Source: Talinum fruticosum
Lineage: Eukaryota > Streptophyta > Magnoliopsida > Caryophyllales > Talinaceae
Length of the DNA: 64,000 bases
Assembly: GCA_021018815.1 (NCBI GenBank)
Contig: JAITYX010000025.1
Location: 4,946,001-5,010,000 of the forward strand
Direction: 5' to 3'
The notes below the pieces were generated by a model. That model had not been told where the DNA came from, did not search any database, and saw nothing but the letters and a program-made list of their open reading frames with translations. This document shows positions 8,771 through 32,410 of the stretch, one piece after another. The position numbers and the translations under genes were made by a program. Numbering within the stretch: position 1 is the first letter of the stretch; every line of letters begins with the position of its first letter.

Positions 8771-9409
8771 GGATCAGCTGAAAACGCGATCTGCTTGTTT
8801 CCACGCCTACTTACAACTCTCGGTCTTATCGCTTTCTATAGTTTTCTCTCCTCCACGAACCTCTTCATCAGATTTGGAATTCATTCCTCGCCATCGGTCA
8901 ACTTGAATTGGTAAACCTCTCCCTACTCTCGTCGTGTAGATCTCCTCTCTCTTAATCTTTTATTTCATTTTAGTTTCATCTCGTTTCATTAAGTATGGAT
9001 CTCTTCAAATTCTCACCTGTCAAACCTCTCCACCCTCGCCATTGTCGGTTCTTAGGTATGAATCTCTATCCTCTCTTATTTTACGCTTTAAGTTATTTAG
9101 GAAACTATTTTATAGTTAAAGTTTAATGTATTTGCGGTAATTATGTGAATATTGACAATGTGGGTAATGTTTGAGATTGTTGAAATGTTGAATCTTTATT
9201 AAAATATTGAATATTGAGAATGTAGGTAACATTTGTTTAGTTTATTAAGTTGGAAATTCGTGAAATGTTTGAAATTTTGAGAAATGGGTTTAGAAGTTTA
9301 GGATTTATGATAATTATAGCAAAATATGATGGGTAAGGATGGTAGATCAAAAGAGTGCATCGAAATTTGTTTAGGTTTTAGAGAAATAGAAAAATAATTT
9401 GGATATAAG
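8771..9409. other. CACTA interior, left; no ORF recognised
   Basis: The CT-rich stretch 8800-9070 (repeated CTCTCCTC and CTCTC runs) looks like the transcribed leader found inside the left end of many CACTA elements, but this is inference only. 9070-9409 is AT-rich with no recognisable feature. Confidence 0.4.
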
Positions 9410-11127
9410 GTCATCCCCAAAAAGCTTCTCATAAAGATAATTTGTATTCAAATTTATTTATTTTGATGAGGTGATGTTGGGGTGAACTCATTTATCAAAT
9501 TATCAAAATTGGTATCAAAATATGGTTAGAGTTTAGAGAAATAAAAATATTTATTGTTTAGGGTTTGAGGAAATAGAAAAATTTGTGGTTATATATTTAA
9601 GGATATAAATGTGAATATGTCTAAAATTGGAAAGGTATTTGGATATAGGGATCTCCCCAAATACTTGTCATAAAGATAAATTTGTTATCAAATTTATTTA
9701 TTTTGATGAGTTGAAGTTGGGGGTATCAAATTTCCGATTTCCTTTTGGGTGCAAGTTTGTTGTAATATACATTATCGTAAATTAGAGGCCATAATTTTTT
9801 TGACGTTTACGTTATTCATAAGACAATAATGAAATTATGAATGAAATGTTTAGGCCACCCCTTAATTTCCTTTAAAACCCAAGATATAACATGAACTGGA
9901 ATTCTCTTGTTGTGATGAACAACGAGGTCGATTTTATAAGACAACATATGAAGTGTACTTTGCAACATAGGTAGAAGGTCGAGGAGTCAAATATTACTCG
10001 TTTATGACCTTTTGTTTCCATTTGACTCCTCGACCTTCTACCCTTATTTGTGGATCGACCTATGTTGCAAAGTACATTTCATGTGTTATCTTGTAAAACC
10101 GACTTCGTTGTTAATCACAACAAGAGAATTCTGGTTCATGTTATATCTTGGGTTGTTAAAGGAAATTAAGGGGTGGCCTCCACATTTCATTCATAATTTC
10201 ATTATTGTCTTATGAATTACGTAAATTTCAAAAAAATCATGGCCTCTAGTTTATGATAAATGTATAATACATCAAAATTTGAAGCAAAAAGGAAACCATA
10301 TATATATATTATTATATACGTAAACAATTTTCTTACACAACGAATAGAGAGAAAGATACATATGTAAAAATGCAAAAAAAATTGAAGAGGTATTTGGATA
10401 TAAGGATCTCTCCAATTACTTGTCATAAAGATAAATTTACTATCAAATTTATTTATTTTGATGAGTTGAAGTTGGGGGTGGACTAATTTATCCAATTACC
10501 TAAATTATCGGTTTCCTTTTTGCGTGCAAGTTTGTTGTATTATACATGATCGTAATACATGATTTTTTGAGGTTTATGTAATGTATAAAGATAATAATGA
10601 ATATCAATGAATTGTTCAGGTCATCCATTCAGTTTGCTTTAACAACCCAAGACATAAATAGAACCGGAGTTCCCATAACCCTTGTTGACTTTAACATCGA
10701 GGTCAGATTCACTAGGCAAGACATAGAGTCTATATGCAGCGTGGCTCGGACACAAAGAAAAGAAAAGGGATAAAGGATTCATTGGAGAAAAAGGTGACAA
10801 ATAATAGGGAATTATTATTAGTTTTGTGATTGTTTATCACCTGTTTCTCTCGATGAATCCTTTATCCCTTTATCCTTTCTTCATGTACCGACCCACGTTG
10901 CATATAGACTCTATGTCTTGCCTAGTAAATCCGACCTCATTACTAAAGTCAATAAGGGTTATCGAACATCAATTCTAGTTATGTCTTGGGTTGTTAAAAT
11001 GAATTAAAAAGATGACCTCAACATTTTATTTATATTAATTTGTCCTATGCATTATGTAAAATTTCGAATAAAATCATGTCTAGTTTATGATAATGTACAA
11101 AATACATCAACATTGGAAGCAAAAGAA

Positions 11128-11132
<5 letters not shown>
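9410..11132. repeat. tandem units each containing a long hairpin
   Basis: A block reading CTTGTCATAAAGATAAATTT then TTATTTTGATGAGTTGAAG occurs near 9650 and 10400, with a diverged copy near 9420. Each of the two later blocks is followed by a long imperfect palindrome: 9734-10298 (arms about 230-260 bp, pairing across about 9990-10015) and 10508-11132 (arms about 250 bp, loop near 10800-10840). The two palindromes are related to each other, sharing an AACCCAAGA(T/C)ATAA block and an ACGAGGTC/ATCGAGGTC block. This looks like a tandemly duplicated foldback unit of about 740 bp. No coding potential is convincing. Confidence 0.72.
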
Positions 11133-11209
<77 letters not shown>

Positions 11210-11213
11210 TTAT
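11131..11213. repeat. (TA)n microsatellite at left border of the viral dimer
   Basis: Uninterrupted TA dinucleotides run from 11131 to 11205, followed by a short AT-rich transition. It directly adjoins viral sequence whose last recognisable bases (complement of CGTGACTTTA) are at 11221-11230. Confidence 0.9.
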
Positions 11214-11889
11214 AAAATATTAAAGTCACGTAAAACTTAATAAATAATGAGTAAATAAATAATAAGAGATGACTATAAATAAACTTCAAATTTTATAAAA
11301 TATAAACCACGAAATTGTAAATAGAATACTTACAATATTTGTCACAAAAATTAGAAAACACTCTTAAAGAAAATCTGAAACTAGTCTTTAAAATACAAAG
11401 GAAGCAATACACTTTAGTGGAATCTAAACTCACTCGTAAAACCGATGCTTTCTCTCAATAGAGATATATCCTTATATAGCAAATGTAAGGCATCTTTTGG
11501 TAGGAAATGACAATTCTCTTTGAAAGACTACTTGTCTTTTTCCTTCTTTGTCATGACATCTTTATGTTATTACTTCGCAAAATCACATTCCTTCTTTTTC
11601 TTCTTTATGTCTTTGTGTCACACTTTGACAATTCTTTTTGAAATACTACTTGGCTTCGTCCTTCTTTGTCATGGATTTTTATCTTTATGTCCCAATTTTT
11701 GATAGCCAACTTTGTCCTTTTTCTCAAATTGTAGATGAACTTCGGTAGGATTCTTTCAAGTAGAATTCTTTCATACCTATAAAGCGACAAATGTTAGAAA
11801 ATGGTCCTTACTTTTGCCAGAGGTGACCTACAGGCTCTGTTTTTTATCACTCAAAGGGGTCTTGCGAAGAAGGACCTCCAAATGGATCA
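11214..11889 (-). promoter_or_regulatory. virus 1 left copy: intergenic promoter region
   Basis: The reverse complement of this stretch matches 18019-18290 and 25104-25730. On the minus strand it contains a TATA box (GCTATATAAG, 11471-11480) in a CATTTGCTATATAAGGA context, the place of the single pregenomic-RNA promoter of caulimovirids, followed by a leader that ends just before the point where the primer-binding site would come. Transcription from it would leave the virus and run leftward into the (TA)n tract. Confidence 0.7.
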
Positions 11890-13079
11890 GGGTGTGTAGA
11901 AGATGTTGTTGAATCAAGCATCCTCATCACTGTCTCGAATTGTCATGTGCCATAAGCTTCGTAAATAATTTTTTCGAAGTTCAGGCTTATCTTTAAGGAT
12001 TTCTAAAAGATCACGTTGCTTTTGTGATAGATCTTTCGAATGGGATTTTTGTGATCCTTTGGTACTTGAAGAATTTTCCTTTTTGTTGGAGTACATGGAT
12101 TAATAGGAGATGGTTCAATCTTGTTTGGTTTTGATGTTTCAACTGGGGTAGATTAAACAATGTATATTTCTTAGTTTTTATCTTTAGAAAATGTTGAATA
12201 TTCTCCTTGTTGCAGAGTGTAGTCTTATACTTTGGCCACCATCTAACCTTGTAGATACGAGACCATTGAAAACGGATAAGGATTCTATATGTAATTTTGA
12301 AATCAATATTCCTAACTAAAAATCCATGCAACATTGAATGTTCGAAAGAATTGTACTTCTTTTGCAAAAGGATCAAAAGTTGAGCCTTTGAGTCATTGAT
12401 CCCATCCTTCTCTAGATTCCGTCGGCAAAATAGAGGAAGTGGCACCAAAAAGGGGTCCACCAATGACAGAACCATACTCGGGAAGTTTTTAGTGCAAGTA
12501 TCATAAAAATTGAAGAATCAGGAGTGGACATCTCGGTCTATAAAGAAATACTCTATACCAAGCCATTTTGTAATCGTTGTAGTTATAATATTGTGGTTGA
12601 TAGGGGATAGAAAATTGTCTCTCTTCAAATGGATTCTTCCACTCATGGGAACCAACAACTTGTCGAATGATGCACTTGGAATAAAGTATGTAGTCCGGAT
12701 TTGTTTTGTCTTTTGTATGGGTAAAGTCAATTGAATGCGAATTTACAAGAATAAACTTGTAGAATCGTCGATCCTTTTGAGAATGGTCGGTATGAAAATG
12801 GAGGTTTCCAAAACCTCATTGGATAAATTCTCGAATAGGATCATTGGATGAAGGGCACTTATAATTTGTAAGAAACAAATGTTCTGTAAATTTAACATGA
12901 TAATGGGTAGCGGTAGGATTTGTGACGACAGCTTTGTAGGTAAAGGAGGGAAATTTGTAAGGTATTGAAATTTGTTCTCGAACTCGGTATTTTGATATCA
13001 TGAAAGGTTCCTGGGTGAGAAACCAACTGGTATCTTCAACCTTTTGTATACCTTTTCCTTTGTCCTTCCGCTTACTCAT
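11890..13079 (-). pseudogene. virus 1 left copy: second ORF (unknown function), broken
   Basis: The start ATG is at 13079-13077, inside an ATGA overlap with the TGA that would end the first ORF. The N-terminal part opens with a basic MSKRKDKGKGIQK segment and is open to 12816. Further pieces follow in other frames (12730-12518, 12475-12011, 12096-11914). The C-terminal part is rich in Ser, Lys and Gln. It aligns with 23889-25103 in the right copy. Florendoviruses have such an ORF of unknown function. I recognise no domain. Confidence 0.65.
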
Positions 13080-13084
13080 GGTTA

Positions 13085-13600
13085 CTCCTGCAAAAGTTTT
13101 GTTTTGTCACTCTTTCCTTGTAAAAAATCTCTAGTAAGAAAATCTGGAAGTGAATTGCTTTCTCCTTTGATAAATTCTATTTTGAAATCAAAAAAGATGA
13201 AATTGCTTGCCATCCGGCAAAGATTTGCTTAGAAACCAAATTTTTAACGTCCTTTTGTAAAATAAATCATCCTGAAATTTTGAAACACAAAGAACAATAG
13301 ACCAAAATTTTTTTAAGGTTAGAATAGTTTTGTTGAGGACCTAGCCATATTCCCGAATAAAATCGAACAAGTTGTTCCTTTTTGTCGGGACCTGTCATTT
13401 TTGCTTGAGTATACCGCCATATCCTATATCAGATGCATATGTTTCAACTATCATATGTGCATTTAGATGAGGTATGCTAAGACAAGGTAAAGATTTGACT
13501 CTATGTTTAATTTGTCTAACTATTTCGGTATATTGTTCTGTCCAGTGGAATGGGCTTCTTTCTAAGCCTTCTAAAAAGAGGAGCACATGTCTGTCTTAGA
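13085..13600 (-). pseudogene. virus 1 left copy: RNase H domain, broken
   Basis: A segment from 13586 to 13395 matches the beginning of the RNase H region, with a VETYASDIGYGGIL block corresponding to the first catalytic aspartate. The remainder (13390-13085) follows in other frames. RNase H removes RNA from the RNA:DNA hybrid during viral reverse transcription. It aligns with the right copy at 23400-23892. Confidence 0.7.
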
Positions 13601-14850
13601 TTCGGGAAAAATTCATAAACATAATTAGGACATCGTCTAAACCTTTGCAATTGTTTTTTATCTTTTATTTCATGTGGAAATTTCTCAGCAAAAGTGAGTG
13701 CTCTCGTAATAGGTTTTATAGTTCCTTTGTAAATATCATGTCCAAGAAATCTTATTTTTGTTAGAAATAATTTGAACTTGGAATAGCTAATCCATTTTTC
13801 TTAGTAATATGTAAGACTATCTATAAATGTTTAAAATGTTGATCAATGGTTTTGGAAAAGACCAGGACATCATCAATGTAAACAATAATAAAAGAGGTAT
13901 ATGGGTTAAAAATGTCGCTCATAATATTTTGAAATTCGAAGGAGCATTTTTTAATCCAAAGGGCATAACATTCCATTCACAAGGTGTCCAAATGCAACAA
14001 GTAAATGATGTCTTCTATCGATCAACTTCTGCAATTTGTATTTGCCGAAGCTGGATTTCATATCAAATTTTGAAAATATTTTAGTGTCAAAAAATCTACT
14101 TAGTAAATCTCTTTTGTTAGAAATCGATACCGAATCCATTGGAGAACTTTATTGAGGGGTTTGTAATTGATAACCAGTTTGGGAAATCCACATTCCTTTT
14201 CTGCAAGCATTATTAACATAGAATGCTCCACAAATCCAAGGAGACTTTGAAGATGTAATGAGTTTGTCTAAAAGTGATTGAATTTCACTTTACAATGCTC
14301 GAGAAGTTCTAAATTCATTTGAGTTCGGCAAGCTTTTATAAGAATATTTCTTTCATCAAAATCTTTTATATAAGGTAAGGAAACTATGTGCTTTTTTCTT
14401 TCCCAAAAAGCATTAGGGACATCGGAACATATCTATTTCTTTATGATTTGTTCTAGATCAAGAATTTTTTCTAAATTGAGGGATTTTGCAACTATTCTTT
14501 GATCCCGAGATAAGAAATCTCTTCTTGTAAATGGGTAATTGTAGTTTGCTTATATTATAAACTATTAATTTGTCGAAAAATAGAGGATGTTTGTAAAAGG
14601 GAGACATCTCTTTTCTTAGCAGACGATAAGAATTTAAAGGAAATTTGTTTACCCATAATATTAGTGTGCACTCCTAATTCATTAGCATAAAAAGGATAAA
14701 TTTGAGTGAGGAAAGGAGTACCAAGAATGAGATCATTGGTAATATTGTCAACGATTAAAAATACATTTTTAAAACATTGTTTTGGATATATCCTTTATTT
14801 TATTTATATCTAATGTTTAAAGGTTCTCCATTTGCGCTGTAGAGGTTTTC
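13601..14850 (-). pseudogene. virus 1 left copy: reverse transcriptase, broken
   Basis: The RT region aligns with the right copy at 22061-23290. The catalytic YIDD box lies near 13867-13880 on the minus strand, and an FSKFDMKSSF block (motif with the first catalytic Asp) lies in the open segment 14139-13951. Stops and indels divide the domain into short pieces. Confidence 0.8.
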
Positions 14851-15299
14851 TTTAGTCCTTTCACAATATTTAGTTGGAACAATTCCTCCTCTAATGCAAT
14901 TTTGATCTACTCCACTGTCAATTAGAGTAATTGTACTTATAGAGAAATCACCAACAACTAATTTGACTATAGAATACCATTTTTGGAAGGTAACTTGAGA
15001 TAAGGTTTGTAAGAATTGATCGTTTGGAACTTCTTCTATTGATATATGAGATATAGAGGTATCATCCTCTAGACTAGAAGAATTAGTCTTTTGAGATTCT
15101 AAAATAGCGAATTCGGTTTCAAGCTCAAGGTCTTTAGTTTTTATTTCTAGAATATCTTGCTTAAGGATTCTGAGTTGAGCCTTTAATTCATTAACTTCAG
15201 CTTGAATCTCTTTTGTAGTAATTTGTTGGAAATGATTTGGAATTGGGTATTTTTCATATAACTTAGAGAGATTTGGAGTTTCATGGTCGAGTTTAAAGG
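14851..15299 (-). pseudogene. virus 1 left copy: aspartic protease and upstream coiled segment
   Basis: On the minus strand near 14900-14930 the sequence reads LIDSGVDQNC, the active-site context of caulimovirid aspartic proteases. Before it (about 15060-15260) is a charged Glu/Lys/Leu-rich stretch with heptad-like spacing. The protease releases the mature proteins from the polyprotein. Stop codons interrupt it. Confidence 0.7.
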
Positions 15300-16640
15300 G
15301 TTTTGGATCTTCATTGAGAATAAGTTGTTTAAACTTTTCTAGATATTCTTTCTTTATCTCTCGGGTTAGAAATTTTTCCTATTAAATCTAATAAGAATTC
15401 CTTTTGACTTTTATCGGTGATAACGTTATGTTGCTTAGTTGGAGAAGACTCATGACTCGAGTCTTTGTCTTCCGTACTAAGGTAATAATCTTCCTCATTA
15501 TTAGAGTTAGAAGAATTGTGGGCTAAAATTGATAATAGTTTCTTTTGTAAGTTAGGATCTTCAGGAAAAAGTTCGTTAATTTTCTTTTCTATTTTACAAT
15601 GGAAAGCTTTATGACCAACCTTGCCGCACTTGTAACAAACAATTTTCTTCTTGTTATTAGGAGTATCTGTTTTTGAAGTAAAAGCTTTAGAAGGTTTTCG
15701 TTGTTTTATAGTAAAGACTCTTCCAGCTTTTTTATTTTTTCTAAACAGGGCTTCAATTTTTGTGATACCAAAGGCATCACAAAAAGTTCCCATCTCCCTT
15801 CAAGACTCGGGCTCTTTCTGATCCATATTTGGCTTGTAATTTGGTTCATTACAAAGGACAAGTCCTTCAGCTTTAACTATTCCAAAAAATTGTCCAAATG
15901 TAAAACGGCTAAAAGGAATGTCATCTCGTGTTGGAATGTTGCCTTAATTTATTAAGGATTCGTTCTCCAAAGAGTTTAGGAAGACCAACATGAATCTTTC
16001 TTTCCAAAATTTTGGGTTCCGTCTTCACGTTTAAGGACATTAGTAAGGAAAATGTCTTTGTACCATCTATAATCGCTTAAAGTTGGACATCTAAGGTGAA
16101 TAAGGACAGAATTAGCGATCGCTTGTTCTTCATTTGGGTGGCCAATGAAATGAAGCGTAATATTATGAATTAAAAGTTTAGAACCATCTTCTTCATCTCT
16201 TTCTATCTCATTTTCTTGTTTGATTTTTGTAGTGTGATTGAAGATAGAAGTTTTTCTTCGTGGGTCATGAAGTTGTCCCACCAATTCTTAAGTTATCCTG
16301 TAAAACCTAAAGCAAGTAGTGAGGCAACATCTTTAGTAGTATATCTTTTTGCTTTGTAGGCAACGATCGCCATACCCATTTTTTGTAATGTGGATAAAAT
16401 TTCATGTTAGGATTTTCCATATATGTTATGTTCATAAATAGAATTTCCATCATAATGTCCTCGCTGAAAATTCTCCTCTTTCTTCATATTGAATGTCCGG
16501 AGGAGTGCGCTTAGGGTAATAATTTCTAGTTTTGGAATTTCTTCATGATTTAATTTTGTTTATTGAAGGCTACTCATTATCCTCTTCGGAAGTGTTTTGG
16601 AAGGTCTTAATTACAAATAGCTCGTTATCCGAATCTGATG
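15300..16640 (-). pseudogene. virus 1 left copy: coat protein with zinc knuckle, broken
   Basis: The coat-protein core is open between 16284 and 15976. The C-terminal nucleic-acid-binding part is open from 15793 to 15329 and contains the knuckle CYKCGKVGHKAFHC (CX2CX4HX4C) at 15596-15637, preceded by Lys/Arg-rich sequence and followed by a Ser/Asp/Glu-rich stretch. A zinc knuckle at the coat-protein C-terminus is typical of Caulimoviridae. The first half is broken by frameshifts. Confidence 0.82.
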
Positions 16641-17379
16641 CGGATGAAGAAGAAGACTCAAGTACTTTGTAGTTGGAGAGTATTATCAAGACAACTAATA
16701 GATTTGCCTTTAAGAACGATGTCAATATCTTTTATTTGTTTAGATATGCTACCCAAAAGACTATCATTAGAATTTGAAGCAACTTTAACAAGAGATTCTT
16801 CATTTTCTTTAGGAATACTATCAAGTTTAAAGAAAGGTTTAGAAATATTGTCTATGTATTCGTAAGGTTTTTTATTACTAGTAAAACTTTCAAGAGACTT
16901 CAATTTTTTTGTATCTAATTTTGTCGATACCAAGGTTAGTTACTTTGCTATTATTAAGAATTGCATTTGTGTAGTTTGTCCGTTGATGGACCTTTTTAAG
17001 ATCATCAGCAGTAGCAGTGTCACCTCCGACCTTTTTTATAAGGTAATGCAATGACTTCTTCATCATTAATTTTGAGTGTAATTGCTTCAGTCTTGGGAGG
17101 ATGAACAGAAACAAAACTAGTGCCACTTTGAAGATGTCACACTTTTAGAAGCTGTGTTTGGACATTAATACTAGGAATCGAATAAACATTTTGAAGTCCT
17201 AGATGTGAGGAAGATGTAGGGAAACATATAAAAAGGGAATATTGGCTGATAATCTTGTCATATCGACTATCCATTTTTTTTAATTTTGGGTTTAAGGTTT
17301 TCTTAAAATTCTTGAAACCATTTTCTATAATGTATATTTTTCTAGGAATAATAATCTTGTTTTAAAAAGGACCAATTTA
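16641..17379 (-). pseudogene. virus 1 left copy: region between movement and coat protein, broken
   Basis: Open pieces at 17126-16890 and 16933-16658 align with the right copy at 19580-20395. The second piece is rich in Lys, Ser and Asp and contains SLLGSISKQIKDIDIVLKGK, nearly identical to the right copy near 20150. I assign no function beyond part of the viral polyprotein. Confidence 0.65.
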
Positions 17380-18018
17380 TTTCAAACCCTCATTTTGTAA
17401 TGACATTAATTCCTCCTCCTATCCTAGAAGACGTGAGAGAGGAACTATCCGGAACGAGCTCTGCGATGGGAGCCGTAAACCTATATCTTTGGGAATTGCT
17501 AAGAGTATATGTTCTAATAGAAGAATAATCGGAAAAGGATTTTCTAGAATTGGAAGAGCTAGGTCTTGAAATATTTTCCTTCATAGATTTAAATCGATAA
17601 GTACTCTACCATCGGGTTCTTCTATAATTTGATCTATATCTTTTTCTTCTAATTGTGTAGGAAGCTGAGCATTTTCTAGTTCGAGTTCATCCGGGATTAT
17701 AATTTCATCCCATTTAAGGAGTTTCGGGGTAAAGACAACGATGTTTCTCATCAAATATTTCAACTAAAACAGTTTCTTTGAAGTTAGAAGGAAGATGACT
17801 TAAATATTTTGTGTTAAGGTTTGTAAACATAAGTCTAAAATAAACTCTACACATAACCGCAAAGTTTTTAAAATCATAAAATTCGTCACCTTATAGGTAA
17901 ACATCTAATTTTAACGAATCAATTGTCACTGGACAGGTAAGATTAACCGGAAAATCTGGATAGCAATTGAAGAAAACTGGACCATTACAAATGTTAGTAT
18001 GAATCATAGCTAATAAAG
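17380..18018 (-). pseudogene. virus 1 left copy: movement protein, N-terminal part missing
   Basis: The pieces 17763-17581 and 17584-17390 match the C-terminal half of the right-copy movement protein at 19159-19524, and 17790-18018 matches 18895-19150 there. At 18018 the sequence leaves the movement-protein gene at the point equivalent to right-copy position about 18899 and continues as viral promoter sequence in the opposite direction. About the first 140 codons are therefore absent. Confidence 0.75.
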
Positions 18019-18483
18019 ATGCCTTACATTTGTTATATAAAGATGTATCTGTATTGAGAGAAAGCATCGGTTTTACGAGTGAGTTTAGATTCCACTAAAG
18101 TGTATTGCTTCCTCCGTAATTTGAATACCAGCTTCGATTTTCTTTAAGGAAGTTTTTTAATTTCGTGACAAATATTGTAAGTATTCTATTTACAATTTTG
18201 TGTTTCATATTTTATAAAATTTCAAGTTTATTTATAATCATCTCGTTATTATTTATTTACTCATATTTTATTAAGTTTTACGTGACTTTAGTATTTTAAT
18301 TTACGATCCCGCCAAGCTGGTATCGAGCTATTACCGCATTGTTATTATTGTCTTTGCATCTAGACGTTGGTTAAACGTTGGTCAGCCTTAAATCTGTTGG
18401 TCGACCAATAGTAGGTGGTCCTGGTTGGTAGTCCCGTTGGTCCCCGTTATTTGCAGCGAGTACTTTAGTTAGAATGTATTAAA
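18019..18483 (+). promoter_or_regulatory. virus 1 right copy: promoter, leader and tRNA primer-binding site
   Basis: TATATAA at 18034-18040 lies in the same context as the minus-strand TATA at 11471-11480. The transcribed leader continues through CGTGACTTTA at 18281-18290. TGGTATCGAGCT at 18318-18329 resembles the initiator-Met tRNA primer-binding site TGGTATCAGAGC shared by caulimovirids and many copia elements. The remaining leader to 18483 has no ORF. The movement-protein ATG follows at 18484. Confidence 0.75.
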
Positions 18484-19524
18484 ATGGCTTCTAAATTACG
18501 TGGATTATTTTCGTTTGGGTCCGATAGTAATTCTAGTGACACAATTAATAGTCAAGAAATTAGAACAGAACCTTTATTTAAGGCCTCATCACCTAATGAA
18601 TATCATAATTGGATTATACCTAAGGTCAAGCCCGAGACAATTTACAAAATAGGTAAATTTGATTTTTCCACTACTTATTTAGTCAAAACTAATGAAGAAA
18701 TTATTAGTTTACAAAATGGTCTACAAACAATTTCATTGATCAAACAGAGTCTATTAATAATCATTTAAAGGAAAATTATAGATTCATGCATATAGGTCTT
18801 GTTCAAGTTGTCTGTCAAACCTTTTGTTCAAAAAGGAATTAACGCTCCTATTTATATGGCTCTTAGAGACAAACGATTAAAAAGTGTAAGTCCTCTTTAT
18901 TAGCTATGATTCATACTAATATTTGTAATGGTCCAGTTTTCTTCATTGCTATCCATATTTCCCAATTGATCTTACCTGTGCAATGACAATTGAATTGTTA
19001 AAATTAGATGTTCATGCACAAGGTGACAAATTTTATGATTTTAAAAACTTAGCGAGTTATGTATAGAGTTTATTTTAGACTTATGTCTACAAACCTTAAC
19101 ACAAAATATTTAAGTCCTCTTCCTTCCAACTCAAAAGAAACAGTTTTACTTGAAATAGTTGATGAGAAACCTCGCTGTCTTTACCCCAAAACTCCTTAAA
19201 TGGGATGAAATTACAATCCCGGATGAACTCGAACTAGAAAATGCTCAGCCTCCTACACAATTAAAAGAAAAAGATATAGATCAAATTATAGAAGAACCTG
19301 ATGGTAGAGTACTTATCAGATTTACATTTATGAAGGAAAACATTTCCAGACCTAGCTCTTCCAATTCTAAAAATCCTTCCCCGATTATTCTTCTATTAGA
19401 ATGGATACTCTTAGCAATTCCCAAAGATATAGGCTTACAGCTCCAATCCCAAAGCTCTGTTCCGCATTGTTCCTCTCCCACGTCTTCTAGGATAGGAGGA
19501 GGAATTAATGTCATTACAAAATGA
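18484..19524 (+). pseudogene. virus 1 right copy: movement protein, broken
   Basis: The start is the ATG at 18484, the first after the leader, giving 94 open codons. A frameshift near 18750 and stops near 18840-18900 follow, and reading resumes at 19159-19524. The middle part contains an ICNGPVFF-like block near 18930, typical of caulimovirid movement proteins. The C-terminal piece is rich in acidic residues and then Ser/Thr. The protein normally forms tubules through plasmodesmata. The first half has no counterpart in the left copy. Confidence 0.75.
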
Positions 19525-20395
19525 GGGTTTGAAATAAATTGGTCTTTTTAAAACAAGATTATTATTCCTAGAAAAATATGCATTATAGAAAATGGTTTCA
19601 ACAATATGAAGAAAACCTTGAAGCCAAAATTAAAACAAAATGGAGAGCCGATATGACAAGATTATCGGCCAATATTCCCTTTTTTATATGGTTCCCTACA
19701 TTTTCCTCACATCTAGGACTTCAAAATGTTTATTCGATTCCTTGTATTAATGTCCAAACACAACTTCTTAAAGTGTGGTATCTTCAAAATGGCACTAGTT
19801 TTGTTGTTGTTCATCCTCTTAAGAGTGAAGCAATTACACTCAAAATTAATGATGAAGAAGTCATTGCATCACCTTATAAAAAAGGTCGAAGGGTGACACT
19901 TCTACTGCTGATGATCTTAAAAAGGTCCATCAACGAGCAAACTATACAAACGCAATTCTTAATAATAGCATAGCAACTAACCTTTGTGTCGACAGAATTA
20001 GATACAAAAAATTTAAGTCTCCGAAAGTTCTATTAGTAATACAAAACCTTCGAATGTGTAGACAATTTTTCTAAACCTTTCTTTAAACTTGATAGTATTC
20101 CCAAACAAAATGAAGAATCTCTTGTTAAAGTTGCTTCAAATACTAATGATAGTCTTTTGGATAGCATATCTAAACAAATAAAAGATATTGACATCGCTCT
20201 TAAAGGCAAATCTATTAGTTGTCTTGATATTACTTACCAACTACAAAGTAATGAGTCTTCTTCTACATCTGAATCAAATTTAGATAACGAGCTATTTGCA
20301 ATTAAGACCTTCCAAAACACTTCCGAAGAGGATAATGAGCAGCCTTCAATAAACAAAATTAAATCATGGAGAAATTCCAAAACTAGAAATTAGTA
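19525..20395 (+). pseudogene. virus 1 right copy: linker between movement and coat protein
   Basis: Open pieces at 19578-19973 and 20157-20393 align with the left copy at 16658-17380. The second piece is acidic and Ser-rich. No known domain is recognised. It is probably the spacer of the polyprotein and the start of the coat protein. Confidence 0.6.
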
Positions 20396-21540
20396 CCCTA
20401 AGCCCACTCCTCCGGACATTCAATATGAACAAAGAGGAGAATTTTCAACAGGATATATGATGAATTCTATTTATGAATGGAACATAGATGGAAAATACTA
20501 ACATGAAATTTTATCCACATTACAAGAAATGGGTATGGCAGCCGTTGCCTACAAAGCAAAAAGATATACTACTAAAGATGTTGCCTCACTACTTGCTTTA
20601 GGTTTTACAGGATAACTTAAGAAATGGTGGGACAACTTCATGACCCACGAAGAAAAACTTCTATCTTCAATCACACTACAAAAATCAAACATGAAAATGA
20701 GATAGAAAGAGATGAAGAAGATGGTTATGAACTTTTAATTCATATTATTACTCTTCATTTCATTGGCAACCCAAATGAAGGACAAGCGATCACTAAATCT
20801 GTCCTTACTAACCTTAGATGTCCAACTTTAAGTGATTATAGATGGTATAAAGACGTTTTCCTTACTAATGGCCTTAAACATGAAGACGGAATCCAAAATT
20901 TTTGGAAAGAAAGATTCATTATTGGTCTTGTTAAACTCTTTGGAGAACGAATTAAGATAACATTTCAACACGGATGACAGTCCTTTTAGTCGTCTTACAT
21001 TTCGACAAGTTTTTGGAATAGTTAAAGGTGAAGGACTTGTCATTTGTAACGAATTCAAATTACAAGCCAAATATAGATCGAAAGAGCCCAGTCTCGAAGA
21101 GAGATGGGAACTTTTGTGAAACTTTTGATATCACAAAAATTGAAGCCCTGTCTATAAAAAATATAAAAGCTGGAAGAGTCTTTACTAGAAAACAACGAAA
21201 ATCTTCTCAAGCTTTTACTTCAAAAACAGATACTCATAAACAAAGATTTCTAAAGAAAAAAAATTAACAAGAAGAAAATTGTTTGTTACAAGTGCGGTAA
21301 GGTGGGTCATAAAGCTTTCCAATGTAAAACAGAAAAGAAAATTAAAGAACTTTTTGCTAAAGATCCCGATTTACAAAAGCAACTATTATCAATTTTAGCC
21401 CACAATTCTTCCGACTCGATAATGAGTAAGATTATTACCTTATTACGTAAGACGAAGACTCGAGTTATGAGTCTTCTCCAATTAAGCAACTTAATGTTAT
21501 CACCGATAAAAGTCAAAAGGAATTCTTATTAGATTTAATG
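20396..21540 (+). pseudogene. virus 1 right copy: coat protein with zinc knuckle, broken
   Basis: The core is open at 20624-20977 and contains DYRWYKDVFLTN-type sequence shared with the left copy. The zinc knuckle CYKCGKVGHKAFQC is at 21284-21325, after a Lys-rich stretch, and is followed by acidic and Ser-rich sequence. A frameshift lies between the core and the knuckle. Confidence 0.82.
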
Positions 21541-22060
21541 GGAAAAATTTCTGACCCAGAGATAAAGAAAGAATATCTAGAAAAGTTAAAACAACTTATT
21601 CTCGATGAAGAACCAAAACCCTTTAAACTCGACCATAAAACTCCAAATCTCTCTAAGTTATATAAAAATACCCAATTCGAAATCCTTTCCAACAAATTAC
21701 TACAAAAGAGATTCAAGCTCTAGCTAATGAATTAAAGGTTCAAGTGAAAATCCTTAAGCAAGATATTCTAGAACTAAAAACTAAAGACCTTGAGCTTGAA
21801 ACCAAATTCGTTATTTTAGAATCTTATAAGACTAATTCTTATATTCCAGAGGATGATACCTCTATACCTCATATATCAATAGAAGAAGTTCCAAATGATC
21901 AATTCTTACAAACCTTATCTCAAGTTACCTTCCAAAAATGGTATTCTATAGTCAAATTAGCTGTTGGTGATTTTCGTATAAGTACAGTTGCTCTAATTGA
22001 TAGTGGAGCCGATCAAAATTGCATTAGAGGAAGAATCGTTCCAACCAAATATTGAGAAAG
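21541..22060 (+). pseudogene. virus 1 right copy: coiled segment and aspartic protease
   Basis: A Lys/Glu/Leu-rich segment (21744-21840) with heptad-like repeats precedes the protease active site LIDSGADQNC, with Asp-Ser-Gly at 21999-22007. The frame stops at 22055, shortly after the active site. The catalytic triad itself is intact. Confidence 0.75.
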
Positions 22061-23290
22061 GACTAAAGAAAACCTCTGTAGCGCAAATGGAGAACCTTTA
22101 AAGATTAGATATAAATTAAATAATGGATATATCCAAGACAATGACTATTGTTTTAAAAATGTATTTTTAATCGTTGACAATATTACCAATGATCTCATTC
22201 TTGGTTCTCCTTTCCTCACTCAAATTTATCCTTTTTATGTTAATGAATTAGAAGTGCACATAATATTATGGGTAAACAAATTTCCTTTAAATTCTTATCA
22301 TCTCGCTAAGCAAAGAGATGTCTCCCTTTTACAAATATCCTCTATTTTTCGACAAATTAACAGTTTACAATATAAGCAAACTACAATTGCCCATTTACAA
22401 GAAGGGATTTCTTATCTCGAGATCGAAGAACAGCTTGCAAAATCCTTCAATTCAAAAAAAAATTCTTGATCTAGAACAAATCATAAAGAAACAGATATGT
22501 TCCGATGTCCCTAATGCTTTCTACGAAAGAAAAAAGCACATAGTTTCCTTACCTTATATAAAAGATTTTGATGAAATAAATATTCCACAAAAGCTCGCCC
22601 AATTCTCGAATATTGTAAAAGTGAAATTCAATCCCTTTTAGACAAACAACTCATTAGATCTTCAAAGTATCCTTGGAGATGTACATCATTCTATGTTAAT
22701 AATGTTGCAGAAAAGGAACGTGGAGTTCCCAAACTAGTTATCAATTACAAACCCCTCAATAAAGTTCTCCAATGGATTCGGTATCCGATTCCTAACAAAA
22801 GAGATTTACTAAGTAGATTATTTGACGCTAAAATATTTTCAAATTTTGATATGAAATCCAGCTTCGTCAAATACAAATTGCAGAAGTCGATCGATAGAAG
22901 ACATCATTTACTGTTCCATTTGGACACTATGAATGGAATGTTATGCCCTTTGGATTAAAAAATGCTCCTTCGAATTTCAAAATATTATGAACGACATTTT
23001 TAACCCATATACCTCTTTTATTATTGTTTACATTGATGATGTCTTGGTCTTTTCCAAAACCATTGATCAACATTTTAAACATTTATAGATAGTCTTACAT
23101 ATTACTAAGAAAAATGGATTAGCTGTTCCAAGTTCAAAAATAATTTTATTTCAAACAAAAATGAGATTTCTTGGACATGACATTTACAAAGGAACTATAA
23201 AACCTATCATGAGAGCACTCACTTTTGCTGAGAAATTTCCACATGAAATAAAAGATAAAAACAATTGCAAAGGTTTTTAGGATGTCTTAA
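22061..23290 (+). pseudogene. virus 1 right copy: reverse transcriptase, broken
   Basis: Open pieces 22254-22469 and 22318-22641 lead into a conserved RT region: LVINYKPLN near 22735, FSNFDMKSSF near 22840, an [13 protein letters not shown] block near 22945 and the catalytic YIDDVLVF box at 23029-23052. Stops and indels separate these blocks. RT copies the viral pregenomic RNA into DNA. No integrase is present, as expected for Caulimoviridae, so integration was by host repair. Confidence 0.85.
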
Positions 23291-23892
23291 TTATGTTTAT
23301 GATTTTTTCCCGAATCTAAGACAGACATGTGCTCCTCTTTTTAGAAGGCTTAGAAAGAAGCCCATTCCCTAGACAGTAACAATATACCGAAATAGTTAGA
23401 CAAATTAAACATAGAGTTAAATCTTTACCTTGTCTTAGCATACCTCATCTAAATGCACATATGATAGTTGAAATAGCTGCGTCCGATATAGGATATGGTA
23501 GTATACTCAAGCAAAAAATGACAGATCCCGACAAAAAAGAATAACTTGTTTGATTTTATTTGGGAATATGGCTCGGTCCTCAACAAAACTATTCTACTAT
23601 TAAAAAAGAAATTTTATCTATTGTTCTTTGTGTTTCAAAATTTCAGGATGATTTATTTTATAAAAAATTTCTTTTAAGAATTAATGGAAAAGTCGCCAAA
23701 GATATTTTACAAAAGCACGTTAAAAATTTGGTTTCTAAGCAAATATTTACCACATGGCAAACAATTTTATCTTCTTTTGATTTCGAAGAGGAATTTATCA
23801 AAGGAGAAAGCAATTCACTTCCAGATTTTCTTACTAGAGACTTTTTAAAAGGAAAGAGAGACAAAACAAAACTTTTGCAGGAGTCACCTTGA
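23291..23892 (+). pseudogene. virus 1 right copy: RNase H and end of first ORF
   Basis: 23560-23892 is one open segment. It contains the NYSTIKKEILSIV block of RNase H and the C-terminal ESNSLPDFLTRDFL block, and ends at a TGA at 23890-23892. The upstream part (23330-23555) with the SDIGYGSIL block is frameshifted. The end of this ORF overlaps the beginning of the next. Confidence 0.8.
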
Positions 23893-25103
23893 GTAAGCAA
23901 AAGGATCAAGGAAAAGGTATACAAAAAGCCGAAGAAAAATAGTTGGTTTCTCACCCAGGGAACCTTTCAAGATATCAAAATACCAGTTCATAATAAATTT
24001 CAAACCCTTATAAATTTCCCTCCTTTACCCTACAAAACTGCTGTCACAAATCCTACCGCTACCCATTACTATGTTAAATTTACGGAACATTTGTTTCTTA
24101 CAAATTATAAGTCCCCTCCATCCAATGATCTTTTCCAACAATTTATCCAACGAAGTTTTGGAAACCTCCATTTTCATACCGACGAGTCTACGAGTTTATT
24201 CTTGTAAATTTGCATTCAATTGACTTTACCCATATAAAAGACAGAACAAATCCCGACTACATATTTTATTCCAAGTCCATCATCCAACAAGTTATTGGCT
24301 CCCATGAGTGGAAGAATCCATTTGAAGAGAGACAATTTTTTATCCCCTATCAACCACAATCTTACAACTACAACGATTACAAAATGGCTTGGTATAGAGT
24401 ATTTCTTTATAAACCGGATGTCCACTCTCGGTTCATCAATTTTCATGACACTTGCAACTACAAACTTACCAAGTATGGTTTTATCATTGGTGGACCCTTT
24501 TGGTGCCACTTCCTCTATTTTTCCTACAAAAGCTAGAGAAGGATGGGATCAATAGCTCAAAGGCTCAACTTTTGATCCTATTGCAAAAGAAGTACAATTC
24601 TTTCGAACGTTCAATGATGCATGGATTTTTCGTTGGGAATACCGATTTCAAAATTACCTACGTAATCCTTATCCACTTTTAATGTTCCGTATCTACAAGG
24701 TTAGATGGTGGCTAAAGTATAAGACTACACTCGCAAGAAGTAGAATGTTCAACATTTTCTAAAGACAAAAATAAAGAAATATACATTGTTTAATCTACCA
24801 TAGGCTGAAGCATCAAAACCAAACAAGATTGAACCATCTCCTATTAATCCATCTCGCTCCGACAAAAAGGAAAATTCTTCAAGTACCAAAGGATCGCAAA
24901 AATCCTGTTCAAAAGGTCTATCACAAAAGCAACGTGATCTTTTAGAAATCCTTAAAGATGAACCTAAACTTCGAAAAATTATTTACGTAAGCTTACGACA
25001 CATGACAATTCGGACAGTGATGAGGATGCCGATTCAACAAGCATCTTCTACACACCCTGATCCATTTGGAGGTCCTTGTTCGCAAGACCCCTTTGAGACA
25101 TAA
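23889..25103 (+). pseudogene. virus 1 right copy: second ORF, start codon lost, broken
   Basis: The expected ATG, present in the left copy at 13079, is TTG at 23889-23891 here, within TTGA where the left copy has ATGA. The N-terminal segment is basic (Lys/Gln/Gly). A long open piece is at 24210-24536, rich in aromatic residues. The Ser/Lys-rich C-terminal part ends with a stop near 25101-25103. Function unknown. This ORF has no homologue that I recognise outside florendovirus-like genomes. Confidence 0.65.
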
Positions 25104-25726
25104 AAAATAAAAATAAAAATAAAAAGAGCTCGCAGGTCATCCCCGACAAAAGTAAGGGTCATTTTCTAACCTTTGTCATTTTGCAGGTATGAAAGAATCC
25201 TACCGAAATTCATCTAAAATTTGCGAAAAAGGACAAAGTTGGCTATAAAAAATTGTGACATAAAGATGAAAAGTCATGACAAAGAAGGAAGAAGCCAAGT
25301 AGTCTTTCAAAAAGAATTGTCAAAGTGTAACACAAAGACATAAAGAAGAAAAGGAAGGAACGTGATTTTGCGAAGCAATAGCATAAAGACATCATGACAA
25401 AGAAGGAAAAAGACAAGTAGTCTTTCAAAGATAATTGTCATTTCCTGCCAAAAGATGCTTTACATTTGTTATGTAAGGATGTATCTCTATTCGGAGAAAG
25501 CATAAATTTTTACGAGTGAGTTTAGATTCCACTAAAGTGTACTCGCTTCCTCTATATTTTGAAGACTAGTTTCAAATTTTCTTTAAGCAAGTTTTCTAAT
25601 TTCACGTGACAAATATTGTAAGTATTCTACTTACAATTTCGTATTTTATATTTTATAAAATTTAAAGTTTATTTATAATCATCTGTTATTATTTATTTAC
25701 TCATATTTTATTAAGTTTTACGTGAC

Positions 25727-25730
<4 letters not shown>
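25104..25730 (+). repeat. virus 1 right copy: terminal repeat of promoter and leader
   Basis: 25104-25450 corresponds to 11530-11889 of the left copy (complement). 25451-25730 repeats 18015-18290 as a direct repeat, ending in CGTGACTTTA at 25721-25730. The TATA position reads TTATGTAAG and so is weakened compared with 18034-18040. Confidence 0.8.

Positions 25731-25800
<70 letters not shown>
25731..25800. repeat. (AT)n microsatellite at right border of the viral dimer
   Basis: Pure AT dinucleotides directly follow the last viral base. The tract mirrors the one at 11131-11205. Confidence 0.9.
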
Positions 25801-25809
<9 letters not shown>

Positions 25810-26440
25810 TATAATATAATATATACGTAACCAATTGGAAGCTAAAAATTCTTTGAATGGGAAGAGAGGTAGATGCTTTATTGAGGGAGTTAGTAAGAAT
25901 AATTCTTTAACTTAACTCTCTCCTTCGATCATAGAGAAAATGAGTTACGAGAGCTTCCTTTGCACTCATCAGCAATGACGCGGCGGGCGGAGGTGCCACT
26001 TCAAGCATGGGCTCAACGTCGAGTCCCCCTTGGAAAGCAGATGAATCGGTGGAGGGCCCTTTCTCTCGTTCTTCTCCGGTCCGAAGGAACTTACCGAAGG
26101 AGAAGGGGTGGAACCTCCCAAGGAAAAGAAGAGGAACCTCCCTAAGAAGAAGTGAGGTTGTGCACCTCTACCCCTACACGAACTCCAAGCAAGCAAAATA
26201 CATAAGAGGAGCATCACTTAGGGACGACGACAAAGAAAATAGAGATTGCTCGTGAGGACCAAGAACTCGTATTACTTTCCGCACTTTCTGCGGCACTTCG
26301 CTATTCTCGAGCACTTCGTTGTTCTCGGGTCATCTATTTTCCTAAATTGATCCTTTCGTAATAGATTTAGTTATGTCAGCTCACTCTTGATAGGTTCGTG
26401 GGCGAGATCATTGAATTTTTATGTTGTCCACCTCTTTGTG
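25801..26440. other. CACTA interior, right; no gene recognised
   Basis: AT-rich sequence is followed by a comparatively GC-rich patch (25970-26240) with overlapping short ORFs on both strands, none with a recognisable domain. CCTCTACCCCTACACGAACT near 26164-26185 is similar to the hairpin arm at 26490-26520. I see no better explanation for this patch. Confidence 0.4.
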
Positions 26441-27200: not shown

Positions 27201-29981
27201 TGTTAAATCGTATTTTATACGTATTTTTAGTAGTTATTTAGTTTATATTATATAGTTTATTTTATCTAATTTATCCTATTTTGACTATTTATAGGTAATT
27301 ATCAAACAAAGTGGGGAAGAAAAGAAAAGATGTTAAAAGCGGATTTTTAACTACCGACAAGCGTTCAAGAAAAGACATGAAATCGGTCCATAAAAATAAT
27401 GTGTCATAAAATATTTATTTTATGACATGATATTTTTTAAAGTCTTAATTTGAAGAGGAGAGGGAAGATAATCATACTTCTAAACCTACTAGGACTCTTC
27501 CTTAGAGTTGGATGAGAAGAAAGAGGAACCAAACCTAGAACCTCACTAGCTATTTAGTAGCTACAAAGCCTTACGTGAAGAGCTCTTGGCCGGCTGTTCA
27601 TCATCCACTTCCTTCGCTGCCTAACTTCTTTCGCTGCCCATCTTTTCTTATCCACCATCATCATAATATTTCATACAATCCCATAATCATCTTCATCATC
27701 TTCAACGTCACAGGCCAGCCATCTACATCATTGCTAATCATCGCTGACCACATATCGGTAGTATTATTTAGTATTGTAATTTTTTACTAGTAAAAATTAA
27801 ATTTTTATTATTAGATTAAAACTAAAGATTATATTTTTATTTAGATTATGTGTTTTAAATTACATCATGTGTGAGTAGTTTTTTATACTTAGTATAATCT
27901 ACTTGAAACCATGTTAAATTATTTATTTTGAAACAAAGTTTTGATCTTTATTGTCTTATTGATTCAATCCATGATTCTATGATAAGTTGATTTTAATGTT
28001 TATGATTTTATGTCTAATTAATTAGAGTGCACACTAATTAGTTTTATACAAATTCATATGATTGTTTAAAGGGTTTAAGTACGTAATCGCTTGATCTTTT
28101 AGACATAAGTATCACCCTAATTAATTATGGATGGCTCATACCCATTTCTTTTAATTAGGAAATTATCATAGATCCTTCTAAATCAATTTGCTAGTAGATT
28201 GGTTATTAGGTGCTAGATGATATTTTTCTAATACTTAATGCTCTAATTTGATTAAATTCTAGTGCTAGTGCTAGGGTTATCAATATTAGTAGGGTTTATA
28301 TTAGGGCTAGGCCTAAGTAAACTAATATTTAAGGAAAAACGGGGAAGATCCGTTAGTGATTGTCTTCTATAGTTTAACTCATGGGTAGATCAATTTGTGT
28401 GTTAATGAGAAATAATAATTTGCATGGTGGATATAGATTATACTAAGGCTCTATTTGATTCTAAGAAAATAGGTTGGAAAGAAAATTTAAATGGAAAAAA
28501 AGTGATGAGGAAAAAAAGTTAAGAGGAAATTGATTCTTTTTCTTGTGTTTGGTTCAAGGAAAAAATAGAGGGAAAAAAATTATAATTCTTTTCCAACATC
28601 TTACCCATCCACCACATTATCATGGAGAGGAGAGAAAAATATTTAATAGTATTGATTAATTGAGAGGAGAAAGAAATTTTTTAATGTTCTTTCTTAATAG
28701 AAGTCTCTCTCTTTTCTCCATTTTTCTCTCTTTGTGAGTTTTTTCTTCCATTTTTCTCTCAATTTTGGAAGGAAAATATCATTAACTAAATTGACAAAAG
28801 TTTCCATGAGTTTTTCCATTAAACTTTTTTTCTCTCATTTTTCTTCAATTCAAACATGGGAAAGAAATTTATTTTCCACATTTGTTTTCTTTCCTTCTAA
28901 TTTTCTTAGAATCAAACGGAGCCTAAGTGTTTTTATAAATTTGATATCTTTGATAATTATTTGTTTGCTTTTTAGTTATTTTCTTGAGTTTGTTAATTTT
29001 TATTTATATATTTATAGTCTTTTATTATCAAATTAATTATTCCCCCCTAAAGATCAGTGTTTTAGGTTAGTTTTGTTAATTTTATCTTAGTTTAATTTTG
29101 AGTCTTTATATATTTTAATTTTCAGATTATTTTTCTGTCATTTTTTATTATTTTTGAGTCAGTTTGTTAGAAATTAGTTTAAAAATAGTTTCTTTTACTA
29201 TTTTTCGTGTTTTATCTTCTTTTAGAATTTAGATAGAGTCCTAGTTTTATGTGATTAAATTTTAGAATTTTTGGAATTAATTTGATAATTTTCAGATTTA
29301 ATTCTTGAATTTATTTACTGCAGGTTTTTAGTTAAATAATTTCGTAAATTCGATTTTAAATTTTATTTTTATATTTTTAGGGTCTGTTTAGGTCTAGAAA
29401 ATTAGTGTTATTATTCTAGATAATTTTAGTATTTATTTTCGTAATTAATTTAATGCAGAATTTTACTTATTTAATTTTCTGTATTAGAATTTGTTTATTT
29501 TCTGCTCTAGTTTTCTGTTTCAATTATTCTAAAAAATATAAAAAAAATATTTCTGGGTTATTATAAATTTTATATTCTATCTAGGTTATTTATTTATATT
29601 GTTAGACAATTTTCTGTTAATTTTAGTTATTAAATTCTGAGTTATTCTATGTTTTAATTTTCTGTTTAAGTTTTTATTTGATTTTCTGTTTTGAATTTTC
29701 CAGAATTAATTAGGATAGTTTCGTCAAATTTAGATTATCAGAATAAAGTTGCATAATTTCAAGTCTTTCTCATGATTAAATTTAGTAATTTAGTAGTTTA
29801 ATTTGAGTTGTTTGAGTTCTACAAAGTTAAACAAAATAACTAGAGTAGGAAGTTTAATTAGATTGAAAGTTTGATTTTTACATTATCTTTTCTCGTGGAT
29901 TCGATCCCTACTTTCTTATGCTATATTGTTAATTATAAGCCTAAGTAGTGGTTTAATTTGTAGCTGTACGACAAGCTAACA
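27201..29981 (+). repeat. Athila-like 5' LTR
   Basis: The LTR is TG...CA bounded (TGTTAAATCG ... GCTAACA). Compared with the 3' LTR it carries a MITE insertion (28447-28923) and lacks about 90 bp near 27590, where the 3' LTR has 36805-36895. That gap lies between two GGC(T/C)GG-like words, as expected for a small slippage deletion. Outside these changes the two LTRs differ by only scattered substitutions. Confidence 0.92.
28447..28923. mobile_element. MITE, Tourist/PIF-Harbinger-like, in the 5' LTR
   Basis: The termini GGCTCTATTTGATTCTAAGA and (reverse complement of the other end) GGCTCCGTTTGATTCTAAGA are inverted repeats. It is flanked by TAA on both sides (28444-28446 and 28924-28926), and the 3' LTR shows the empty site at 37769-37772. 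A 3-bp TAA/TTA duplication and a GGCTC(T/C)GTTTG-type end are typical of Tourist-like elements. It is 477 bp, with long T-rich and A-rich arms and no ORF of its own. Confidence 0.88.
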
Positions 29982-29986
29982 AATTT

Positions 29987-30003
29987 TGGCACCGTTGTCT
30001 GGG
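29987..30003 (+). promoter_or_regulatory. Athila-like primer-binding site
   Basis: TGGCACCGTTGTCTGGG starts 5 bases after the LTR. It resembles the complement of the plant tRNA-Asp 3' end (TGGCGCCGTTGCCGGGG) with a few C-to-T-type changes. Confidence 0.8.
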
Positions 30004-30196
30004 AAGAAAATAATAGTTGTTAGTTTTTATTTAATTTATATTTACTACTTTTATTACTTCTTTGGGACTTTAATAGTTTATTTTCATAGTTTATTTTTAT
30101 TTAGTGTTTTGTTTTATTTTAACAAGGAGCATACATTTGAAAAAGTTGAAAGCCAAGTGTTTTTAAATCTGTTTCGTAAGTTCCGAAATTATTGAG

Positions 30197-32400: not shown

Positions 32401-32410
32401 CCCAAAATTA

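What the first reader, a model, noticed from the sequence alone, without database searches (positions are those of the whole stretch)
11131..25800. Head-to-head pararetrovirus dimer bounded on both sides by TA microsatellites
Two copies of one florendovirus-like genome lie in opposite directions (11214-18018 minus, 18019-25730 plus). Both outer ends stop at the same viral point, CGTGACTTTA, about 30 bases before the primer-binding site, and both touch (TA)n tracts. Endogenous caulimovirids are known to lie at TA repeats. Here the whole dimer sits inside one such tract, which suggests a single repair event at a broken TA repeat that joined two viral molecules.
Basis: partly seen in the sequence, partly recalled or inferred. 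Interest (0 to 1): 0.8.

Follow-up and report, generated by a model that had tools for sequence, protein, structure and literature searches.

The report
Paired viral fossils inside TA repeat
Two back-to-back fossil copies of an extinct plant DNA virus lie inside a single run of TATATA in a plant chromosome, and other copies in the same genome suggest that the virus was often captured at such repeats by the ends where it starts copying itself; this is a clear case of a phenomenon that is largely known already.

Summary
A minus-strand copy (11213-18018) and a plus-strand copy (18015/18019-25734) of a florendovirus-like pararetrovirus lie head-to-head. [quoted passage not shown]

Strongest new result: a paralogous empty site. 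The host flanks are two halves of one very-high-copy repeat. In 10 of 10 virus-free copies fetched, they are separated only by a TA-rich tract. The dimer therefore entered one TA tract without loss of flanking DNA.

In the same genome, 41 right-end contexts were read: 21 end, all at -42..+3 of the PBS (18 on a dinucleotide repeat, 3 on inverted viral DNA). Of 40 left contexts, 21 begin on a dinucleotide repeat (7 at the PBS, 14 about 550 bp upstream) and 9 are head-to-head joins. The virus thus integrated mainly by ends that match reverse-transcription priming, sometimes with LTR-like terminal repeats.

The central join has 5-nt microhomology. Two molecules or one self-copied strand is not settled; mosaic arm ancestry leans to two.

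Precedents: TA-flanked florendoviruses (Geering 2014) and the cotton eCPRVE head-to-head pair. Verdict: a new member of a known kind, unusually informative about mechanism.

The parts
10518..11130 (+). Host: palindromic half of a very-high-copy repeat, left flank of the dimer
   Evidence: Inverted self-match 10506-11124; 1531 first-look candidates, 40 scored, 78 matches in the genome
11131..11212 (.). Left part of the host (TA)n tract
   Evidence: junction
11213..18018 (-). Minus arm: viral copy running from the equivalent of plus 18895 to the right end at p = -20
15329..15793 (-). Open piece of the minus arm with a zinc knuckle
   Evidence: PF00098, above its cut-off
18015..18019 (.). Head-to-head junction, 5-nt microhomology AAAGA, no TA
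18019..25734 (+). Plus arm: terminally redundant viral copy (one unit of about 7440 bp plus about 276 bp)
18019..18294 (+). Left copy of the plus arm's terminal repeat; TATA-like TATATAAAG at 18034
18318..18328 (+). Met-tRNA primer-binding-site-like TGGTATCGAGC
   Evidence: identity as Met-tRNA PBS from general knowledge of the family
19578..19973 (+). Open piece matching DUF7588
   Evidence: PF24496, above its cut-off
20624..20977 (+). Open piece resembling the caulimovirus coat domain
   Evidence: PF22909, E 3.4e-05, below its cut-off
21744..22055 (+). Open piece resembling retropepsin
   Evidence: PF00077, E 0.0085, below its cut-off
23560..23892 (+). Open piece matching RNase H of reverse transcriptase
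   Evidence: PF17917, above its cut-off
25180..25230 (+). Position equivalent to the second left-end cluster seen in other copies (start of the LTR-like repeat)
25455..25734 (+). Right copy of the plus arm's terminal repeat, right end at p = -24
25731..25825 (.). Right part of the host (TA)n tract
25826..26000 (+). Host: other half of the same repeat, right flank of the dimer
   Evidence: 82-93% identity over 93-178 bp in 10 of 10 virus-free copies, directly after the left flank and (TA)n

Best explanation
[quoted passage not shown] Two such molecules, one of them terminally redundant, were joined left side to left side by microhomology (AAAGA). The inverted dimer was captured as filler at a break inside the (TA)n tract of one copy of a high-copy host repeat, its AT-rich right termini annealing to TA. 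Shown: the arrangement, both outer ends, the microhomology, and the TA tract without virus in paralogous copies. Inferred: the break, the order of the steps, and that two molecules rather than one took part. Decay, and probably gene conversion between the arms, followed.
For: Empty paralogous site in 10 of 10 copies fetched. Both outer ends at p -24 and -20. 21 of 21 right ends among 41 contexts at p -42..+3. 5-nt microhomology and no TA at the centre. Distal parts of the arms group with different copies. C97 is a second dimer whose two outer ends are right ends on TA. Discontinuities at the priming sites of caulimovirid DNA are established (PMC7660458, passages).
Against: The arms share 18 private variants in 24 pieces, rank 2 of 132 pairs, and are sisters in 4 of 7 pieces, which a single self-copied molecule would also give. 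Neither inner end of the window's dimer is at a natural left end (v25455 and v18895). Some copies break elsewhere (L009 near v22400, L028 at v19607, L076 at v25490). The paralogous test is not an orthologous one.
Confidence: 0.6

Rival explanations
1. Snap-back: one minus-strand DNA folded back at its 3' (left) end on a short homology and was copied by reverse transcriptase, giving an inverted dimer with both outer ends at the minus-strand start; the dimer was then captured at the TA tract.
For: Both outer ends are right ends; microhomology at the centre; excess of private variants shared by the arms; sister arms in 4 of 7 pieces; in several other joins one arm starts at a natural left end and the other is cut inside (L037, L042, L045).
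Against: Arms should then be sisters along their whole length; in 23450-24350 the minus arm groups with L009 (support 0.96) and the plus arm with C58 (0.76), and at 24350-25100 they are not sisters either. The low-divergence block 22930-23138 suggests gene conversion as the source of part of the sharing.
Confidence: 0.2
2. Two successive insertions at the same TA tract, the second next to the first, with loss of the TA and viral sequence between them.
For: Elsewhere a TA tract lies between two viral copies (L017), so repeated use of one tract happens.
Against: There is no TA at the centre of this dimer; both flanks rebuild one repeat copy. It needs an additional precise deletion.
Confidence: 0.12
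3. Inversion after insertion: two direct copies in TA tracts, one flipped by recombination between the self-complementary (TA)n tracts.
For: (TA)n is its own reverse complement, so such flips are conceivable; direct copies with TA between them exist (L017).
Against: It predicts a TA tract at the centre; there is none.
Confidence: 0.04
4. Assembly artefact.
For: Long inverted repeats and long TA tracts are hard to assemble; no reads were available.
Against: The arms differ by 8-10%; the flanks rebuild one repeat copy; 8 other head-to-head joins among 40 left contexts.
Confidence: 0.04

Closest known systems
Endogenous florendoviruses flanked by (TA)n (Geering et al. 2014, PMC4241990; passages seen)
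   Same: Unit of 7.2-8.5 kb, Met-tRNA site, (TA)n flanks that existed before insertion (shown there with empty orthologous sites in Oryza), copies longer than one unit, end joining at TA breaks proposed
   Different: There the association was counted within 1 kb of (TA)n; here the viral ends are mapped to bases and cluster at the PBS and at a second point. The passages seen mention no head-to-head dimer (terms head-to-head, inverted and breakpoint: 0 hits in the main text).
eCPRVE head-to-head pair in cotton (PMC10458927; passages seen)
   Same: About 15-kb head-to-head pair of caulimovirid copies, delimited on both sides by Met-tRNA PBS motifs
   Different: Arms 98.98% identical, another putative genus, no TA tract reported in the passages seen (term TA dinucleotide: 0 hits)
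[quoted passage not shown] passages seen)
   Same: Junctions concentrate in the intergenic region and at positions matching the discontinuities of the open circular DNA; integration from open circular DNA proposed
   Different: Other genus; no head-to-head dimer in the passages seen
Petunia vein clearing virus with quasi terminal repeats (PMC8256270, passages; Kuriyama 2022 known from a reference entry only, paper not held)
   Same: LTR-like repeats in an endogenous pararetrovirus
   Different: Other genus; here the repeat is bounded by two clusters of integration end points
LTR retrotransposons
   Same: In part of the copies, terminal direct repeats of about 530 bp directly followed by a tRNA PBS
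   Different: No integrase match in the 10 pieces scanned, ragged ends, targets are dinucleotide repeats, no recognisable target-site duplication

Membership tests
Caulimoviridae | Coat, retropepsin and RT/RNase H domains of the caulimovirid type | tested here: inconclusive
   RNase H, zinc knuckle and DUF7588 above cut-off; caulimovirus coat domain and retropepsin below cut-off; ORFs are broken and only 10 open pieces were scanned
[quoted passage not shown]
   TGGTATCGAGC at 18318; other copies read TGGTATCAGAG-like variants; plus arm terminally redundant; L009 circularly permuted
Florendovirus | Genome of 7.2-8.5 kbp | tested here: met
   Unit about 7440 bp; range from PMC4241990
Florendovirus | AP-RT-RH1 phylogeny within the florendovirus clade | not tested
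   The genes are broken and pieces find few relatives; one IMG/VR scan with a protease-region piece found none
Florendovirus | Polyprotein ORF1 plus an ORF2 of 45-58 kDa without homologues | tested here: inconclusive
   An open piece downstream of RNase H (12011-12475, minus) has no Pfam match; the ORFs were not read through
Florendovirus | Frequent (TA)n flanks | tested here: met
LTR retrotransposon | Terminal direct repeats adjoining the PBS | tested here: met
   In part of the copies, e.g. C17 (L012 + L013); in the window the left repeat is shortened to 276 bp
LTR retrotransposon | Integrase and target-site duplication | tested here: inconclusive
   No integrase match in 10 pieces (not exhaustive); a duplication cannot be recognised inside (TA)n

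The most novel reading that the evidence does not exclude
This virus integrated mostly as a retrovirus-like linear DNA. Its right end is the minus-strand start at the tRNA site. Its left end is either the PBS or a second fixed point about 550 bp upstream (v25178-25230), so that many proviruses carry LTR-like repeats although no integrase was seen. Left ends of two molecules often join, three times at one preferred homology (PBS -7/-8 to v25185/6), which would make head-to-head dimers a regular product of replication or repair rather than an accident. Dinucleotide tracts supply the break.
Probability: 0.35. Interest if true: 0.75.

Novelty: new member of a known kind. Interest (0 to 1): 0.55.

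Why it matters
How integrase-free plant pararetroviruses enter chromosomes is called speculative in a 2023 review (PMC10377300, section 3.1 read). Here one genome gives dozens of junctions at near-base resolution, with paralogous empty sites. The viral ends match reverse-transcription priming sites and the host ends are dinucleotide repeats, so the hypothesis 'linear viral DNA joined at a broken TA repeat' can be tested by counting. Head-to-head dimers also form long inverted repeats, which in other plants are reported to feed siRNA production (PMC10377300, passages).

Tried and rejected
One exact viral end point: rejected. Right ends among the 41 contexts spread over p -42..+3; outside that set L058 lies at -59 and L080 at about -46.

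A simple self-copied strand: disfavoured by the mosaic ancestry of the arms. alone had pointed towards it. My notebook (entry) says 5 of 7 sister pieces; one search gives 4 of 7.

A deletion shared by the two C97 arms as proof of sister arms: withdrawn. The short form also occurs in L079, L080, L082 and L086 and so marks a subfamily. The 94.5% identity of the two C97 right ends (311 bp) was not tested against its own subfamily.

The second left-end cluster as pgRNA start or polypurine site: not decided. A TATA-like box lies about 280 bp downstream, a conserved purine run (GAGAAAAAAGGA type, about v25224) just downstream, and a splice-acceptor-like CAG|G just upstream. PPT, TATA and splice readings rest on recalled consensus.

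First attempt at a right-flank paralogue, with unit 1 inside the window: not significant by shuffling (126 of 2000 and 3041 of 5000 shuffles as good). Superseded by the virus-free copies.

Mid-genome query for truncation density: not usable, because only the 40 best-scoring of 316 candidates are listed. Five of the 9 copies fetched from it were uninformative.

Outer ends of other dimers: 12 stretches fetched at predicted places, most missed the arms' ends; only C97 was completed; L078 held no virus.

IMG/VR scan with a protease-region piece: 13 pattern matches, no relative by tblastn. Rfam: nothing in the window at gathering scores. A genome-wide count of the PBS-7/v25186 join could not be run (tool busy).
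Full report
What is there. Two decayed copies of one caulimovirid-type genome lie head-to-head: a minus arm at 11213-18018 and a plus arm at 18019-25734, 89.35% identical over 6939 aligned columns. The plus arm is longer than one genome: its first 276 bp (18019-18294) repeat its last 280 (25455-25734), giving a unit of about 7440 bp. A PBS-like TGGTATCGAGC starts at 18318. Ten open pieces were scanned against Pfam. RNase H, a zinc knuckle and DUF7588 pass their cut-offs; the caulimovirus coat domain and retropepsin match below theirs; several pieces match nothing. I call the virus florendovirus-like because unit length, PBS and TA flanks fit Geering 2014 (PMC4241990, passages); RT phylogeny was not tested.

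Outer ends. Counting p from the first base of the PBS, the plus arm ends at p = -24 and the minus arm at p = -20, each running into (TA)n. The window holds only 3 TA tracts of 16 nt or more; 0.25% of host bases lie within 10 nt of the third.

The empty site. The left flank belongs to a palindromic host repeat of very high copy number: 1531 first-look candidates, 40 scored, 78 matches listed. I fetched 250 bp at and beyond the same point in ten of the listed copies, chosen because their match reached the end of the query. All ten read left flank, TA-rich tract, then the window's right flank from 25826 on, at 82-93% identity over 93-178 bp; in L090 the match starts 19 bases later. The tract is about 15-118 nt in these ten, against 84 + 95 in the window. 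So the dimer lies inside the TA tract of one repeat copy with no other host loss. This is a paralogous test; no orthologous one was possible.

The same virus elsewhere: right ends. A query of 25450-25730 gave 41 matches (40 of 148 candidates scored, so a lower bound). I held the context of all 41. 19 run on through the PBS. 18 end at p -42..+3 on a dinucleotide repeat (17 TA, one of them short, L057; 1 GT, L059). 3 end there on inverted viral DNA (L023, L051, and L015 after a spacer of 46 nt). 1 is an internal duplication (L014).

Left ends. A query of 18330-18600 gave 40 matches (40 of 85 candidates scored), again all held. 7 begin at about p -22..+8 on a dinucleotide repeat (L017, L023, L032, L033, L041, L044, L048). 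14 begin at about v25190-25230 on one (L013, L014, L016, L024, L025, L026, L030, L034, L039, L040, L046, L047, L062; L018 is the outlier at v25288; L040 touches only a short TA run; L039 and L062 are rearranged just inside). 9 are head-to-head joins (window, L022, L029, L031, L037, L042, L045, L063, L064). The last 10 continue into more viral DNA, are complex, or in one case (L038) begin on other sequence (L009, L010, L015, L022 plus, L028, L035, L036, L038, L043, L061). I assigned the classes by reading the junctions, and positions near AT-rich tracts are good to a few bases only.

Bias check. These samples were found with end-region queries. Of 9 copies found by a mid-genome query and read at the predicted right end, 4 reach one, and those 4 sit on a dinucleotide repeat (L079 on a short one) at roughly p -46..-5; 5 were uninformative. 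Breakpoints elsewhere do exist, also on dinucleotide repeats: L009 is a permuted copy opened near v22400 between GT and AT tracts, L028 stops at v19607, L076 at a TATA-like box.

Reading of the ends. Caulimovirid virion DNA has discontinuities at the priming sites of both strands, and minus-strand synthesis is primed by Met-tRNA (PMC7660458, passages). Right ends and PBS-type left ends therefore fit linear or nick-opened viral DNA with a few bases trimmed (inference). The second left-end cluster gives copies with LTR-like repeats of about 530 bp that run straight into the PBS; C17 (L012 + L013, split by a later insert) has both ends on TA. Which priming event sets that left end is unresolved.

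The centre. The window's junction shares AAAGA between the arms and has no TA. Three other joins, L022, L029 and L063 (mirror image), link PBS -7/-8 to v25185/6. In L022 and L063 the homology GCTTNGC is evident, in L029 it is imperfect. By eye their terminal repeats are of different sub-types, so they look independent. A genome-wide count of this join could not be obtained. C97 is a second dimer: both outer ends are right ends on TA (a short tract on the left), and both flanks belong to the same repeat family as the window's left flank.

One molecule or two? In 250-bp pieces the window's arms share 18 private variants (9 transversions) over 24 pieces, rank 2 of 132 pairs with at least 8 shared pieces, 0.75 per piece against a mean of 0.19 (20 loci plus the window). 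Rank 1 is C53 plus/minus, also an inverted pair of one cluster. The arms' mean identity, 0.9245, is ordinary (rank 36 of 132). Trees on seven pieces make them sisters in four (three over 18950-21650, one at 22550-23450; supports 0.68-0.996) and not in three. At 23450-24350 the minus arm joins L009 (0.96) and the plus arm C58 (0.76). In 22930-23138 the arms differ at 3 of 209 sites, the least of 66 pairs, which suggests gene conversion. The three terminal repeats of the locus differ by K2P 0.094-0.106 from one another, close to the divergence between copies, so most change came after insertion.

Compared with what is known. TA-flanked florendoviruses and end joining at TA breaks are in print (PMC4241990, PMC10377300). 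A head-to-head pair delimited by PBS motifs is in print for cotton (PMC10458927). Ends at discontinuities are in print for rice (PMC526188). In the searches made (of the papers opened I saw passages, and one section of PMC10377300) I saw no base-level map that joins these with an LTR-like left end. A 2026 paper states that endogenous pararetroviruses lack flanking LTRs (PMC12904150, passages), while quasi terminal repeats are noted for petunia vein clearing virus (PMC8256270, passages). Many papers of the field are not in the library, so absence here is weak. Verdict: a new member of a known kind, with an unusually clear record of the mechanism.

Noticed in passing
window 9384-11130; L053, L073, L077, L088-L097: A very-high-copy palindromic host repeat with an internal (TA)n tract flanks this virus at three places (window C25, C97, C9); it may be a standing capture site.
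   Followed up: partly
L017 5190-5330: A TA tract of about 100 nt lies between the right end of one viral copy and the PBS-type left end of another in the same direction.
   Followed up: partly
L033, L059, L009, L046, L086: Viral ends also meet GT/TG or CA tracts, so the host target is dinucleotide repeats rather than TA alone.
   Followed up: partly
L009 1803-9205: A circularly permuted near-unit copy opened near v22400 between GT and AT tracts; perhaps a plus-strand discontinuity.
   Followed up: no
window 27201-37149: A direct repeat pair (27201-27594 and 36421-36810, 96.7%, with a further stretch at 27583-27825 and 36883-37149) encloses gag- and RT-like pieces: probably a young LTR retrotransposon.
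   Followed up: no
window 1272-1967, 45670-46308, 59437-60162: Fragments matching a retroviral SH3-like domain and integrase core (two places) and DUF4283: transposon-rich surroundings.
   Followed up: no
window 25160-25190 and equivalents: The second left-end cluster begins just after a splice-acceptor-like stretch (TTCTAAC...TTTGCAG|G in other copies); meaning unknown.
   Followed up: no
window 53402-53505: The third long TA tract of the window, with no viral sequence found at it.
   Followed up: no
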